The notes under the pieces: generated by a model | What the model was told of the DNA's origin: nothing | Database searches by the model: none | The model's input: only the letters and a program-made list of their open reading frames with translations | Source: Verrucomicrobiota bacterium | GTDB taxonomy: Bacteria; Verrucomicrobiota; Verrucomicrobiia; Limisphaerales; UBA11358 | Reading direction: 5' to 3' | NCBI GenBank assembly: GCA_021324235.1 | Contig: JAJPJM010000123.1 | Coordinates: forward strand, 1 to 36,039 | DNA: 36,039 nt | Shown: piece after piece, positions 3,281-31,760 of the stretch | Numbering within the stretch: position 1 is the stretch's first letter | Layout: each line of letters starts with the position of its first letter | Translations under genes and position numbers: made by a program

Positions 3281-3417
3281 GTAGGAGCCGACGTAAGGAG
3301 GCTGATTATTTCCGATTTCCGATATACGATTGACGCGCGGCCGAGGTGGAAGTGAACTCGTAAATCGTAAATCGCACATCGTACATCGAATCGGAGCCTC
3401 GTCACCTCGGCTCCTAC
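3281..3417. repeat. Large palindromic repeat, copy 1 (GTAGGAGCC family)
   Basis: The left arm at 3281-3303 and right arm at 3395-3417 are inverted repeats matching at 20 of 23 positions. The right arm is AGCCTCGTCACCTCGGCTCC plus TAC. Inside lie nested AT-rich inverted tracts of the CGATTTACGATTT type. It fills most of the gap between the FabG gene and the CrtI-like gene, where block A genes otherwise overlap or nearly touch. The same arms recur at 11341-11364 (one half only) and 30139-30232 (inside a gene). Transcribed, it would form a long hairpin and could dampen expression of the two downstream genes. Confidence 0.85.
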
Positions 3418-11340: not shown

Positions 11341-11364
11341 GTAGCAGCCGGGGTAACGAGGCTC
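11341..11364. repeat. Solo half of the GTAGGAGCC palindrome family
   Basis: GTAGCAGCCGGGGTAACGAG plus GCTC matches the reverse complement of the right arm of the ATPase-borne copy (30209-30232) at 22 of 24 positions. No partner arm is present nearby. It lies 26 nt after the ligase stop and before the toxin-antitoxin genes, so it marks the left border of the inserted accessory block. Confidence 0.65.
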
Positions 11365-20730: not shown

Positions 20731-20947
20731 AATTTACGATTTGCGATATACGATTTACGCATAACCCAGGTTACAGAGGGATTTGTAAATCGTAAACCAA
20801 GCCCATGGCCAAACCGGCGTAGCGGCTTTCGGCAGAAAGCCGCAGTCTTCGATCCTCGGAGTTCGCGGCGCTCTGCCGAGACGCCGCTACGAGCAAAGGG
20901 TTTTCTTGGGAGGTTCAAATCGTAATTCAAAAATCGTCAATCGTAAA
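20731..20947. repeat. Composite repeat with GTAGCGGC double hairpin, possible bidirectional terminator
   Basis: This 217-nt gap between convergent genes is almost all repeat. AT-rich tracts (ATTTACGATTTGCGATATAC at the left end, and AATCGTCAATCGTAAATC at the right end) enclose GC-rich inverted arms at 20818-20843 and 20865-20891. The left arm folds on itself with a perfect 9-bp stem and GGCA loop (20822-20843), and the right arm does so imperfectly, so the pair can form one long or two short hairpins. The AT-rich tract resembles the interior of the palindrome at 3281-3417. Its place between two converging transcripts would suit termination. Confidence 0.75.
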
Positions 20948-21688
20948 TCAGTAGGGCCAGTCGCAGAAAATTTCGACCACACTCAACGTGCCGCCGCCCC
21001 AATAGCGGCTGGGGGCAAAGGTGAATACCCGGCGGTTCCGCTCATAGACCAGTTTGACGGGATGCTCGGGAATGTTTGGATCATACGCCTCGAATTCCAG
21101 GGTTGATTCCGACTCCGTCAGTCCGTACAGCACGATGCCGTGGTTGATGGTGATCCGCGGAAAGCGAAACAGATGCACGAGACTCAAACCGCGTCGAGGC
21201 AGCGATTGTTCCAACTTTTCCGCCATCCGTTCCCGATGCCAGCCATGGACCGGAAAGATCATTCGCCAGTGGCTGCGTAGAAAATAGGACTGCCAGGGGC
21301 CGCCCAATTCCGCCTTGAGCAACGGTTCGTGCGCCCGGCTGAACGAACGCAACCCATCGTAGCCGGGCACCACCACCCGCTCCGATTCCGCGCACGCCCG
21401 GCGCGGATTGCGGGCGACGACCTCCCGGATGATCCGCCGGTAAACTTCCGGTTCCGCCACGGGCTGTTCCGGTGCAAAACAGGCGTGATAAAAAAATTGC
21501 CGCGTCGAACGCACCATGACGAAGCAACGATGATAGTAGGTGGGCGGCGGGTTGGAGTTAAAAGTGGTCATCGCGCCGGTCACCGGATCAAAACGGTATT
21601 GCCATACCAGTTCGTGGGGGAACGCGAAGGTGTCGCGTTCAAACTGGAAAGTGCGGACGGACTGCTCGGTCGGCGCCATCATGTTCAT
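20948..21688 (-). CDS. Unknown protein, possible papain/C39-like fold
   Basis: A 246-residue protein, last gene of block D. The start ATG 21686-21688 overlaps the FabZ-like stop as ATGA. I do not recognise the family. The C-terminal half reads ITINHGIVLYGLTESES, then EFEAYDPNIPEHPVKLVYE. A His-x-hydrophobic strand followed by YDPNxP is seen in bacterial cysteine-peptidase-like folds (C39 / BtrH-like acyl or aminoacyl transferases), where His and Asp/Asn complete the site. A cysteine pair lies at about residues 55-71 (RCFVMVRST, HACFAPE). No signal peptide or membrane helix is clear. A transferase or hydrolase acting on the product is possible but unproven. Confidence 0.7.
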   Translation of the reverse strand: MNMMAPTEQSVRTFQFERDTFAFPHELVWQYRFDPVTGAMTTFNSNPPPTYYHRCFVMVRSTRQFFYHACFAPEQPVAEPEVYRRIIREVVARNPRRACAESERVVVPGYDGLRSFSRAHEPLLKAELGGPWQSYFLRSHWRMIFPVHGWHRERMAEKLEQSLPRRGLSLVHLFRFPRITINHGIVLYGLTESESTLEFEAYDPNIPEHPVKLVYERNRRVFTFAPSRYWGGGTLSVVEIFCDWPY

Positions 21689-22939: not shown

Positions 22940-25900
22940 TTACCCGTCCTTCGGCCAGATGGGAGTGAATTGATACCATTGGTCAATATCCTTGCGAATT
23001 TCCGGCTCGAATGCACGCAGGATTTGCTGGGTCAATTCCCGGCGGGCCTCGCGGTTGCCCAGCGTCTGGCGGTCGTAGGTGAACTCCGGCAGCACTTTCA
23101 CGGCGTAACCGTCCGGCCGGCGGACAATGGTCACGCCAATCAACGCGCAGCCGGCGGCCCGCGCCAGTTCCGCCGCCGCCAGCGACGCTTCAAACGGATG
23201 ACCGAAAAATTCTATCGGGACGCCGCCCTTTTCCGGCGGCCGGTCCAGCGAGATCGCCAGGTCCGCTCCGGCCTGGAGTTGTTTGATGACCTCCACAAAG
23301 GCGAAATCGTCCTGGCCGATGACCAGCGTCTCGACGCCGCAACGTCGTCGCGCCTCGATGCGCAGGTCGGTCAGGCCGTCATCGGGTTCGGCTTGGGTCA
23401 GGATGGTCAGCCGGATGCCCAGTTGCGTCAGCAACAGGCCGCCATGTTCCCAATTGCCGAGGTGCAGCGTGATGAAGAGCGTGCCGCGTCCGCGTTGGCG
23501 GGCCGTGCGGATGATTTCCAGTTCGGCGAGATGGGTTAGCCAGTTTTGCACCGGCACACCACTTTCGGCGCGCCATAAATCCACCATCTTTGCGGCGAAT
23601 TTCCGGTGAAGCTGATGCGCGGCCTTTTCGGCGGCCACGCGGTTGCCCGCAAAGAGCGGCAGAAAATTTTGCACCACCACTTCGCAGCGCTGTCGTTGGA
23701 ACCGCCAGTAAAGTTCGGCCACGATTACGGCCAATCCCTTGACCAACCCGACCGGCAGGATGCGCACAATGACGAGGCCCAGCCGCCACAAGCCCGCACG
23801 ATAAAAGGAAAATGGGTTGAGGTTTGAAGATTGAGAGTTGGGGGATTCCTTCTCGCCGTCTTCAGACTTTGGACCTTGGACTTTGGACCTTGGACTCAAT
23901 AACCTCCACCACGTTGGCAGCAGAAAAACCGAGATCAACATGTTGGCGCCAATGCCCACGGCGCACACCCTGCCCAGGCTGGCCATGCCCGGATTGCTGG
24001 AAAATCCCAACGACCCGAACCCGGCCACGGCCGTGCCACCGCATAACATCAGTGCCCGCCCGACGGAACGCCGGACCGCGCCGAGGTCGCCGCCGTGCCG
24101 GCGCAACGCGAGTTGCATGAACAGGGTGTAGTCCACGCCCGTGCCGAGCATCAGCGGCAGGGCCATCAAATTCATCAGGTTCCAGCTCCAGCCGCTTATC
24201 ATCATGATGGCCAACAGACACAGCCCGCTCAGGCACAACACCGCCACTCCCAGCAGAATTTCCGTTGCCCGGCGGAAGGCAAACCAGAGCGAGAGCAATA
24301 CCAGCACCACCATCGGCGTCACCACCTCCCCCATCCGGGATTGCACGCGTTTCAAGGTCGCACCGCCCAGCAGTTCCCAACTGGAAAGCAACGCCCCATC
24401 CCGGGACAACTGTGCCGACAAGCCGGCCAGCGCCGCTGGCTCGACCCGGTTCGTGGCGGGATAAACCAGGCCCATGACCAGCCATTCGTCCGGCGTCCGG
24501 GTAATGAACCGTTTCAGCAGCCATTGGCTGAGGTGATTGGTCGGCCAGAACACGTTGGTGCCGGCGCCGGCGCGTGCCCAGGTATTTACCAATTCCTCCG
24601 TCAGCACGAGCGCGTTGCTATTGAAACCTTCATCCGACGCGGCGTTCCGCAGCAACGGGCCTTTCGTTCCCAGAGCCGTCGCCGCCGTCCGGTTGGCCGC
24701 CTGATATTCAACGCGCGGCCACAGGGCGGTCGGCAGCAAATATTGGCCGATGACATGATTTGAAACCGCGCCGGCCAGCAATCCGTCGGCCCGGGTGAGA
24801 CGCTGATAAACCTCGGGTTCATCCTTGCCGGAAATGATGACCCAGAGCGGCTGCGGCGGCAGTCCCAGCTCCGAGGTGATTGCGTCCAGCGTCGTCTGGG
24901 CCTCGCCGTGCTGCGGTTGCAGGGCATTGCCGGTCCGGTCCAATCCCGGCTGGCGAAAACACAATACCGCGCCCGCCATCAGCAGAATCAAACCGATCAA
25001 CCACAGCGGAGCGCGGTCACGAAATTTTTCGGCGGGCTTCGGCGCAGCCACCAACGGTTGCTGTGGCGCGACAAAATAATTCCACCAACGGAACGGCGGC
25101 TGGTCCGGGCGCGGCTTTCGGCGTTCGGGAAACAGCGGCGGCAGGTAAATCATGACCATCACCAGGGCCGACAGGGCGATGCCGATGGCCACCAGCGTGC
25201 CGAGTTGTCCCAGGCCGGGCAGCCCGCCGAGGTTCAACACCAGGAACGCGCTCATCGTGGTGATGGCCGCCCACAGAATGCTCGGCGCAATCGCGCGGCG
25301 GATTTCCGGCACCGTCATTTGCGGATGCGCGAGCGCTTCCTGGTAATGAACCACGGCGTAATCTACGGCCAATCCCAGCAACACAGCGGCAAAACCCAGT
25401 GCCACCACGCTGATGGTTCCCAGCACCAGCCCGCCCAGCGCGAGCGTCGCGCCCAAAATCAGCATCAGCAGCGCCAGCAACCACAACATCGGCCGCCAGC
25501 GCCGGTGCGTCAGCCAGAAGAGCAGGGCGATGACGGTGGAAGTGATGCCCACCGAATGGCTCATGTCGTGTTGCATGCTCGTTGCGATTTCCTCCACAAA
25601 CACCGGTCGCCCCGTGTAACCAATCACGATGCCATTCGTTCCGGTCACGTCGGCATTTGTGTTTGGCTGCGAGTCAACGATTGCATGAATGGATTTTAAC
25701 CAGCTTTCGCACGAACGGTAGCTGCCCAGATCCACGGCGGATTCCACGTACAAGAGGCGAAAGGTTCCGTCGGGCGACGCGAACATCTGCTGGCTCTGGC
25801 CGCCGGCGAAACTGGAAAGATTGGTCAACGCCGGCATCGTCAGCAGATTGAACGGATCGAACTCGTGCCGGGCCAGGTCCATCGGCGACATGGACGTGGA

Positions 25901-29252: not shown

Positions 29253-31760
29253 CTATAATTTCACCTTGCGCAACCGGAGCGCGTTGCTGACGACCGAGAG
29301 CGAACTGCAACTCATCGCCGCGCCGGCTATCATCGGATTCAGTAGCAGATGCGCCATCGGATACAAAATACCCGCCGCGACCGGCACGCCCAGCGCGTTA
29401 TAAACGAAGGCGAAAAACAAATTTTGCCTGATGTTCTTCATCACCTGCCGGCTCAAGGACAGCGCCTTGACGATGCCTTGCAGATCGCCTTTGACGAGCG
29501 TGATGCCGGCGCTTTGAATGGCTACGTCCGTGCCGGTACCCATCGCAATGCCCACGTGCGCCTCGACCAAAGCCGGCGCGTCGTTGATGCCGTCGCCGGC
29601 CATCGCCACGATTTTGCCTTCGGCTTTCAGTTTCCTGACCAGTTCGAGTTTGCCTTGCGGTGTCAATTCCGCCCGGACCTCGTCAATCCCCAGTTCCTTC
29701 GCCACCACCTCGGCGGTCTTGCGATTGTCGCCAGTGCACATGATGACCTTCAATCCCATGTCGTGCAGCGCGCGGATGGCAGCGGGTGTGGTTTCCTTGA
29801 TGGGATCGGCAATGCCGATGATGCCAACCGCCCGGCCATCCACCGCCACCCAGACCACCGTCTGCGCCTTTTCCTGAAGTTGATGCGATACCTGTTTCAA
29901 ATCGTCGGGAATCGTCACGCCGGAATCACCCAGAAATTTCTCCTTGCCGACACGGATCGTTTGCCCGCCGGTTTTCCCCGACACGCCACCGCCGGTTGTG
30001 GACTCAAAATCGCTTGCCGGTGACAGGGTGATTTTCTTTTCTTTTGCCTCGTCTACGATCGCCCGGGCCAGCGGATGCTCACTCAATTGCTCGACCGCGG
30101 CGGCGAGGCCAAGAAGTTGCGCATCGTCTCCGGAAATTGTAGGAACCGACGTGAGGAGGCTCTGACCAATTGCGGATTGCGGATTGCGGATTGCAGATTT
30201 GTCAGTTTGAGCCTCGTTACCTCGGCTCCTACTGGACGGAATCACACTCACCACCTTCGGTTTTCCGGCGGTCAATGTTCCCGTTTTGTCAGTCAGCAGA
30301 TGAGTGACCTTTTCCGTGGTCTCAATTGCTTCCGCGTTTCGGATGAGAATGCCCGATTGCGCGCCACGGCCCACGCCAACCATGATGGACATCGGTGTTG
30401 CCAACCCCAGCGCGCACGGACAGGCAATAATCAGCACCGACACCGCATTGACCAGCGCGTAAGCCATTGCCGGGGCCGGTCCCCAAACGGCCCAGACCAC
30501 GAAGGTAATGACCGCGGCGCCGATGACCGTCGGCACGAAATAACCCGCCACACTGTCCGCCAGCTTCTGGATCGGCGCGCGGCTGCGCTGGGCTTCCGCC
30601 ACCATCTGCACAATCTGCGCGAGCAATGTTTCGGAGCCGACCTTCTCCACCCGCATCAGAAAAGTTCCCGTCTGGTTGACGGTTGCGCCGACGACGGAAT
30701 CATTCACGCCCTTGGCCACCGGCATCGGTTCGCCGGTGATCATGGATTCATCCACATTGCTCCGGCCCTCGATAATTATACCGTCGAGGGGGATTTTTTC
30801 GCCGGGCCGGACGCGCAGTACGTCGCCTTTCTGTGCTTCCTCCACCGGCACATCCGATTCGAGGCCGTCCCGGACGCGATGCGCGGTTTTGGCCACCAAG
30901 CCGAGCAACGCCTTGATGGCCTGCCCGGTGCGGCTGCGTGCTTTGGCCTCGAGCATCTGTCCCAGCAACACCAGTACCGTGATGACGGCCGCCGCCTCGA
31001 AATAAAGTCCCACCTCACCGTGCTGCCGGAACGATGTCGGGAAAATGCCGGGAGCGATGACGGCCACGGTGCTGTAAACGTACGCCGTGCCGACACCGGT
31101 CGCGATGAGCGTGAACATGTTCAACTGGCGCGTCTTCAACGAACGCCAGGCCCGGCCGAAAAACATTCCGCCCGCCCACAGCACCACGGGCGTGCTCAAC
31201 AGAAATTCCAGCCATCGGGAAACCGGCCTTGGAATCCACTGGTCGATTCGCACGCCGGGAATCCATTGACCCATCGCGAGTACCAGGACGGGAATGGTCA
31301 GGGCCAGACCGATCCAGAATTTGCGGGCCAGCGCGCGGGTTTCGTCGTCATCCTCCGGTTCGGCGGAAACGGTTTTGAGTTCCAGCGGCATTCCGCACTT
31401 CGGGCAATCACCTGGATGATCCTGCTCGATTTCCGGATGCATCGGGCAGGTGTAAATGGTTTTGTCCGCGGTGGCGACCCGGGCCGGGTTCCGTTCCAAT
31501 ACCATTCCGCACTTCTGGCAATCACCCGGCCGGTCTGATTCCTCGCCGGGACACATCGGACAAAAATACTTCGCGTTCGATGCCGGTTTTACCGTGGCCC
31601 CGCCGTGATGCCGGTCGGAAGCGGGGGAATTGCGAATTCCAGAAGTGAGGAACTTTTGCCGGCAATGTTCGCAACAAAAATAGAACGTCTGCCCGTCGCG
31701 TTCGGTTCGCAATGCCGACGCTTCGTCCACCGTCATGCCGCAAACCGGGTCGGTTGCCAT
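29253..31760 (-). CDS. Heavy-metal (Cu-type) P-type ATPase with YHS and metal-binding domains
   Basis: An 835-residue P1B-type ATPase. A YHS domain (DPVCGMTVD, about residues 4-45) is followed by two CPMxP...CxxCGM metal-binding modules (about 66-88 and 108-130) instead of HMA domains. The membrane part carries the transport motif [12 protein letters not shown] (about residue 446). [12 protein letters not shown] (about 488) holds the phosphorylated Asp, SEHPLARAI (about 558) is the nucleotide-binding HP loop, and [10 protein letters not shown] (about 720) is the hinge. It probably exports Cu(I) or Ag(I). Between DKTGT and the HP loop, residues about 509-541 are encoded by a palindromic repeat and are absent from typical family members. 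Confidence 0.95.
30139..30232. repeat. Palindromic repeat copy 2, in frame inside the P-type ATPase gene
   Basis: The arms 30139-30162 and 30209-30232 pair at 20 of 24 positions and match the repeat at 3281-3417. The interior holds three perfect tandem units of GCGGATT. The whole element stays open in the ATPase frame and codes for about 33 residues ([20 protein letters not shown] and on), rich in Ser, Asn and Gln. Confidence 0.85.

What the first reader, a model, noticed from the sequence alone, without database searches (positions are those of the whole stretch)
30139..30232. Palindromic repeat inserted in frame inside a P-type ATPase
The repeat that stands between two genes at 3281-3417 recurs with the same arms inside the ATPase gene, between the phosphorylation motif DKTGT and the HP loop of the nucleotide-binding domain. 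It adds about 33 residues with no stop and no frameshift. This is the pattern of Rickettsia palindromic elements, which insert into genes and are kept as surface loops. I know of no description for this lineage. A surface-exposed position in the N-domain would explain why it is tolerated.
Basis: partly seen in the sequence, partly recalled or inferred. Interest (0 to 1): 0.8.

Follow-up and report, generated by a model that had tools for sequence, protein, structure and literature searches.

The report
REP palindrome inserted in an ATPase
A small mobile palindrome of a known kind has inserted itself, without breaking the reading frame, into a metal-pump gene of an uncultured Verrucomicrobiota bacterium, and in its relatives such elements, sometimes with their whole transposase gene, sit the same way inside many genes including essential ones.

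Summary
Window 30138-30233 is a clean in-frame insertion of 96 nt (residues 510-541) in a CopA-type ATPase. Orthologues at 84% and 72% identity lack it, and AlphaFold2 gives it very low confidence, as for a disordered loop. It does not fit the Rickettsia palindromic elements. It is a head-to-head pair of GTAG-tagged REP hairpins (a REPIN); its arms occur in 77 of 117 genomes of the same genus and order, with no control match. In another Pedosphaerales genome these arms flank a RAYT transposase gene.

GTAG REPs inside genes are already described, most in the verrucomicrobium Opitutus terrae (PMC3733652), so this copy is a new member of a known kind. The surroundings go further. In one relative 26 of 55 paired copies examined lie in frame inside long ORFs; 19 of 20 ORFs tested have a Pfam family (DnaE, LpxB, ArgJ among them). 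Unrelated palindromes occupy the same ATPase and DnaE loops in other species. Whole REP-RAYT-REP units sit in frame in PriA, AlaRS, ThrRS, ClpB, DnaE and a DinG-like helicase (16 ORFs), with dN/dS 0.03-0.20 in 8 of 10 pairs. Seven literature searches found no description of that.

The parts
30138..30233 (-). In-frame insertion of 96 nt, ATPase residues 510-541 ([32 protein letters not shown])
   Evidence: Coordinates; 32 alignment columns absent from orthologues G040, G011 and others; pLDDT below 50 at 512-543
30139..30161 (+). Arm A of the REPIN (GTAG tag, CGTNAG core; 1 mismatch to the family pattern)
30162..30209 (.). Spacer between the arms, with heptamer repeats (ATTGCGG)n flanked by CTGAC / GTCAGTTTG, pieces of which recur in other copies
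   Evidence: sequence; other copies
30210..30232 (-). Arm B of the REPIN (GTAG tag, GGTNAC core; 0 mismatches)
   Evidence: folds alone as a GAGCC/GGCTC hairpin
29253..31760 (-). CopA-type P-type ATPase gene, 835 aa, host of the insertion
   Evidence: Pfam E1-E2_ATPase, Hydrolase, HMBD, YHS
3281..3417 (.). Second REPIN copy (A...B arms), between two genes
   Evidence: single-stranded DNA fold z -3.77
11341..11363 (+). Solitary B-type arm, 2 mismatches, between genes

Best explanation
The segment is a REPIN: two GTAG-tagged REP hairpins (arms A and B) in head-to-head orientation with a variable spacer. Shown: the family structure, its repetition across the order, the clean in-frame insertion, its place in a low-confidence (probably disordered) loop, and in one relative an association with a RAYT gene. 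Inferred: a RAYT (HUH/Y1 single-strand DNA transposase, acting in trans) copied or moved the element as single-stranded DNA into the N-domain loop of the ATPase. Insertions occur in any frame and orientation, and those that break genes are removed by selection. Copies that are open and length-neutral and that fall in a permissive loop remain as near-neutral peptide loops. The same loop is then hit again, or its content replaced, by unrelated REP families. No benefit to the ATPase is needed.
For: 1. Repeat family: 37 sites in the own genome at up to 3 mismatches, control 2; 77 of 117 genomes (own included) of the same genus and order at up to 1 mismatch, control 0 in each; 79 of the 80 contig titles shown, of 120 stretches found, name Verrucomicrobiota. 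2. Each arm is its own hairpin: positions 7 and 20 are complementary in 191 of 254 arms (shuffles mean 87.7, max 110), while between arms position 7 agrees in 61 of 127 (shuffles mean 50.1, max 70). 3. RAYT link: L134 carries a Y1 transposase gene with arrays of exactly these arms on both sides; the protein matches chain 4er8_A, named TnpArep, at E 0.0021. 4. In-frame retention: 26 of 55 paired copies examined in relative G001 lie in continuous long ORFs; 19 of 20 ORFs tested have a Pfam family; the chance of a random in-gene insertion being open and length-neutral is about 0.11. 5. Loop: pLDDT below 50 at 512-543 between strand 502-508 and helix 544-557. 6. Reuse of the same loop: G023, G022, G074 and, in a paralogue, G001 carry other inserts there.
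Against: No RAYT next to this family was found in the own genome: four Y1 hits, the nearest arm site on the same contig being about 7 kb away. Arm A of the window copy has one mismatch and does not fold alone as the family hairpin. Within-arm pairing is broken in 63 of 254 arms. Net length modulo 3 is not constant among in-gene copies (1:11, 2:10, 0:5), so the footprint is variable or other indels occurred. I cannot rule out out-of-frame copies in decayed genes: only 5 of the 7 split cases in G001 were tested, 3 of those gave no Pfam match, and the 22 copies classed as elsewhere were not tested. Transposition itself is inferred.
Confidence: 0.86

Rival explanations
1. It is a Rickettsia palindromic element or a direct relative acquired by this lineage.
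For: It behaves like one: palindromic, in frame, in a probable surface loop of an enzyme.
Against: The tag is GTAG, whereas R. conorii RPE sequences end in CGTC according to PMC3733652; the arms surround a RAYT gene in L134; 79 of the 80 titles shown by the collection scan name Verrucomicrobiota.
Confidence: 0.03
2. The element is adapted to be translated: its arms are tuned to stay open and the peptide gives the host protein a useful loop.
For: 20 of 26 in-gene copies in G001 use one arm phase, 6 use another, and none uses the TAG phase. The same loops are used again in different species.
Against: The elements have no more open frames than shuffled copies (2.02 against 2.16 of 6). Unrelated palindromes occupy the same loop, so no particular peptide is kept.
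Confidence: 0.08
3. Assembly or binning artefact of metagenome contigs.
For: The named genomes are mostly draft metagenome bins.
Against: The arms recur in 77 of 117 genomes, and the same host sites carry inserts in several genomes.
Confidence: 0.02

Closest known systems
GTAG-tagged REPs and REP dimers inside genes, with the highest number in Opitutus terrae (Di Nocera et al. 2013, PMC3733652; abstract, section 15, part 1 of section 17 and passages read)
   Same: GTAG tag, short stem with long loop, head-to-head dimers, 20-30 encoded residues, hits in replication and repair genes, RAYT association as a class
   Different: Whether the sequence family is the same is unknown (its Figure 1 with consensus sequences and its supplements were not available). 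Here about half of the paired copies examined in one genome are in frame inside ORFs, unrelated families occupy the same position of orthologues (that paper reports one such case, recB of two Xanthomonas), and whole REP-RAYT-REP units are embedded in essential genes; the passages I read do not describe embedded RAYTs.
REPINs of Pseudomonas fluorescens (PMC3116915; search listing only)
   Same: Recalled: two inverted REPs with a spacer forming one larger hairpin
   Different: Recalled: those are extragenic; here many are translated
Rickettsia palindromic elements (described in PMC3733652 passages; original papers recalled)
   Same: Palindromes kept in frame inside functional proteins
   Different: CGTC tag; [quoted passage not shown]
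TnpA-REP/RAYT and REPtrons (PMC8266576 search listing; PMC6006769 passages read)
   Same: HUH/Y1 transposase flanked by REPs
   Different: Here the REPtron lies in frame inside a host protein. [quoted passage not shown]

Membership tests
GTAG REP / REPIN | GTAG tetranucleotide at one end of each unit | tested here: met
   Both arms begin GTAG
GTAG REP / REPIN | Each unit is an imperfect stem-loop | tested here: met
   Covarying pair in 191 of 254 arms against a shuffle maximum of 110; arm A of the window copy itself is degenerate and does not fold alone
GTAG REP / REPIN | Head-to-head dimers with a spacer | tested here: met
   127 pairs among own and scanned loci
GTAG REP / REPIN | Many copies per genome | tested here: met
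   37 sites in the own genome, control 2; 154 in G001, control 0
GTAG REP / REPIN | Cognate RAYT gene flanked by the same REPs | tested here: inconclusive
   Yes in L134; none found in the own genome, which is 90.9% complete
GTAG REP / REPIN | Cleavage or mobilisation by the RAYT | not testable with these tools
   needs biochemistry
Rickettsia palindromic element | In-frame insertion inside functional genes | tested here: met
   In-frame insertion in genes; that the proteins work was not tested
Rickettsia palindromic element | CGTC tag (R. conorii RPEs in PMC3733652) | tested here: not met
   Ends are GTAG...CTAC

The most novel reading that the evidence does not exclude
In this order, RAYT transposases live as translated domains inside essential host proteins. 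A complete REP-RAYT-REP unit sits in frame in a permissive loop of AlaRS, ThrRS, PriA, DnaE or ClpB, is expressed with the host protein, keeps its HUH and tyrosine motifs under purifying selection, and cannot easily be lost because cutting it out imprecisely would damage an essential gene. The small in-frame REPINs, such as the one in the window, would be the non-autonomous by-products of the same habit. This is a splicing-free counterpart of inteins and could explain how single-copy RAYTs persist.
Probability: 0.5. Interest if true: 0.9.

Novelty: new variant of a known kind. Interest (0 to 1): 0.75.

Why it matters
Intragenic REPs have been reported, but mostly as a minority of copies. Here a REP/RAYT system populates protein loops on a large scale, and the same position of orthologous enzymes has been reused by unrelated families, which makes these loops a natural map of insertion-tolerant sites. 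Transposase domains embedded in single-copy synthetases and replication proteins, constrained at dN/dS about 0.03-0.20 where it could be computed, offer a testable answer to why RAYTs persist as single genes, and predict fusion proteins that proteomics can look for.

Tried and rejected
RPE membership: rejected on the tag. Known RNA family: 0 Rfam matches at gathering score in the whole window. Coding-adapted element: rejected as the main reading because open frames are not enriched over shuffles. AlphaFold2 of the PriA-RAYT protein: mean pLDDT 50, uninformative, not used. A PDB sequence search with the PriA-embedded RAYT found nothing up to E 1. PHROGs on the PriA-RAYT protein added nothing. 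Constant target-site footprint: not supported. Family arms beside G001 RAYTs: of 8 RAYT loci of G001 checked, 3 (L289, L297, L395) have an arm within about 1.5 kb and none shows an array as in L134.

Rows dropped: of 20 ORFs or regions with a RAYT hit looked at, 4 were left out of the 16. L376 (G049 AlaRS) has its N-terminal part in another ORF. For L381 my motif search found no ORF. L391 and L392 have an unrecognised upstream part, not Pfam-tested. The regions were picked from hits in unusually long open frames, so 16 is not a rate, and not every such hit was fetched. One nested element (L256) was removed from the G001 count (56 to 55, 27 to 26). In one search the DnaE loop was parsed in 21 of 30 orthologues.

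Full report
OBSERVATION. The window carries the same pair of inverted arms at 30139-30232 and 3281-3417. A 23-base arm pattern finds 4 matches in the window and none in 100 shuffles. The element-coded stretch is residues 510-541, window 30138-30233, which is 96 nt. In the alignment of 23 ATPases the window protein has 32 residues where G040 (84% identical) and G011 (72%) have none. The loop is 49 residues here and 17 in the five empty orthologues L040-L043 and L045. AlphaFold2 gives pLDDT below 50 for residues 512-543, between strand 502-508 and helix 544-557; residues 501-510 average 86, 541-550 average 69 and 551-560 average 90.

WHAT THE ELEMENT IS. Each arm starts with GTAG followed by GAGNC, a roughly ten-base loop and GNCTC. 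Arm A has CGTNAG and arm B GGTNAC in the loop. In 254 arms from 127 pairs (own genome plus all 120 genome contigs stretches), positions 7 and 20 are complementary in 191 (shuffled mean 87.7, max 110). Position 7 agrees between the two arms of a pair in 61 of 127 (shuffled mean 50.1, max 70). So the arms are best read as individual hairpins of the GTAG REP type, and the pair as a REPIN. The pairs were 46 AB, 39 BA, 33 AA, 1 BB and 8 with one untyped arm. The window copy folds strongly as RNA (z -7.2) and as single-stranded DNA (z -4.65); its arm A alone does not form the family hairpin, having one mismatch.

DISTRIBUTION. The own genome has 37 arm sites at up to 3 mismatches against 2 for the reversed control. 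At up to 1 mismatch, 77 of 117 genomes (own included) of the same genus and order have the arm and the control is 0 in every genome; 40 of 117 have none.

LINK TO A TRANSPOSASE. In L134 (JAOSKK, bin FR_27, contig labelled Pedosphaerales) a Y1 transposase gene is flanked on both sides by arrays of exactly these arms. Its protein matches chain 4er8_A, TnpArep, at E 0.0021. The own genome has four Y1_Tnp hits. No arm site lies closer than about 7 kb to any of them, so the cognate RAYT of the window copy is not shown.

IN-FRAME COPIES ARE COMMON. Relative G001 (contigs of 698,202 and 318,986 bases match the lengths of JAQTQB010000001.1 and JAQTQB010000003.1, Verrucomicrobiales isolate STB_13) has 154 arm sites and no control site. 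The regions around the first 100 listed places held 55 distinct pairs. 26 lie in a continuous ORF with at least 60 residues on either side, 7 lie between two long ORFs on one strand in different frames or interrupted, and 22 elsewhere. The 26 fall in 22 ORFs, two of which are overlapping pieces of one xanthine dehydrogenase gene. 20 ORFs were tested and 19 have Pfam families, among them DnaE, LpxB, ArgJ, HrpB, UvrD-like, peptidase U32, xanthine dehydrogenase, Ser/Thr kinases, restriction methylases and a further metal ATPase. Of the 7 split cases 5 were tested: none shows one family on both sides, and 3 gave no match at all. The elements are not richer in open frames than shuffles (2.02 against 2.16 of 6), and a random in-gene insertion would be open and length-neutral about 11% of the time. 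Selection against broken genes is therefore the simplest reason for the in-frame excess, with the caveat that out-of-frame copies in decayed genes would escape my classification. In the own genome, 4 of the 14 paired copies found are in long ORFs with Pfam support: the ATPase, GlnE, an MGMT-domain ORF and an apiosidase-like ORF, the last two with the domains on one side of the element only. Over own plus genome-contig loci the figure is 33 of 127; of 23 such ORFs given to Pfam, besides the window ATPase, 18 have a family and 5 have none. That set overlaps G001.

THE SAME LOOP IS USED AGAIN. At the ATPase site, G023 carries a pair of another subfamily (135 sites in that genome at up to 2 mismatches), and G022 an unrelated palindrome (8 sites in that genome including this one). 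G074, from another family, carries one recognisable arm followed by other sequence (its inverted repeat is weak, reached by 7 of 100 shuffles). The paralogue of G001 carries an A...A pair. Of 17 ATPase loops measured, 5 have an inverted repeat that none of 100 shuffles reaches. In the tree G022 and G023 group with the window protein and the empty G040 branches next, with weak support (0.55-0.62); G074 is elsewhere, also weakly placed. So repeated acquisition, or one acquisition followed by replacement of content, must be assumed. In DnaE the loop before the conserved GFISYFLIV stretch behaves likewise: of 21 parsed orthologues, 8 have an inverted repeat that none of 100 shuffles reaches, from several unrelated families, and the other 13 do not.

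WHOLE TRANSPOSASES IN FRAME. The search for RAYTs in the own genome led to L035/L316: a Y1 domain in frame inside PriA, between its 3' DNA-binding domain and its helicase domain, bounded by inverted GTAG hairpins. Relatives gave more: PriA in G022, G018 and G030 (4 of the 30 PriA orthologues looked at, own included); AlaRS in G052, G026, G021, G004, G046 and G013; ThrRS in G057 and G061; ClpB in G014 and G006; a DinG-like helicase in G030; DnaE in G026 (ThrRS and DinG-like are my names for the Pfam domain sets). In all 16 ORFs the HUH motif and a Y..NP motif are present, and inverted repeats of 19-51 nt bound the insert (no shuffle control was run). Pfam finds Y1_Tnp together with host domains in one ORF in the 10 tested, below the family cut-off in one (L377, 20 against 23 bits), and with a host domain on one side only in the truncated L389. 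AlaRS gives no second match in 7 of 7 genomes searched; in one of them (G049, not among the 16) the N-terminal part is in a separate ORF, which counts against a uniform rule. For 10 pairs (not independent) dN/dS of the RAYT core was 0.03-0.20 in 8 and saturated in 2; in 7 of those 8 dS exceeds 1, so the values are rough. In the PriA pair G000/G022 the RAYT has a lower dS than its host (0.32 against 0.92), so it may have been exchanged after the species split. A structure prediction of the PriA-RAYT protein was too poor to use.

PRIOR ART. PMC3733652 (abstract, section 15, part 1 of section 17 and passages read) describes GTAG and CGTC REPs, single and dimeric, inside genes, with most intragenic GTAG units in Opitutus terrae, and discusses that insertions may be neutral in linkers or loops. 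[quoted passage not shown] I found no account of RAYTs embedded in frame in host proteins in the searches, which cover open-licence PMC papers only.

VERDICT. The window copy is a GTAG REPIN kept in frame in a probably disordered loop: a new member of a known kind. The scale, the repeated use of the same loops and the embedded REPtrons make the system as a whole a new variant of it.

Noticed in passing
G000:C76 (L316:1501-4422, L035): PriA of the window's own genome contains a complete RAYT transposase domain in frame, bounded by inverted GTAG hairpins
   Followed up: yes
L377-L380, L386, L388 (AlaRS), L387, L389 (ThrRS), L382, L385 (ClpB), L384 (DnaE), L383 (DinG-like): RAYT domains embedded in frame in essential proteins of relatives, at two different sites in AlaRS
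   Followed up: partly
window 20732-20949: Composite repeat: heptamer runs (ATTTACG-like) on the outside enclosing another palindrome (GTAGCGGCTTTCGGCAG...CTGCCGAGACGCCGCTAC)
   Followed up: no
window 23813-23887: A GTCCAAA-type repeat in frame (SKVQGPKSEDGEKESPNSQSSNLNP) joins an MMPL-like exporter part and an acyltransferase-like part in one 1146-residue ORF; domain names are from reading the translation, not from a search
   Followed up: no
L134:719-3248: Array of the same REPIN family around a RAYT gene, with one half unit inside the upstream part of the transposase open frame
   Followed up: yes
L390/L316: The RAYT inside PriA is less diverged at synonymous sites than its host gene between G000 and G022, hinting at exchange or conversion
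   Followed up: no
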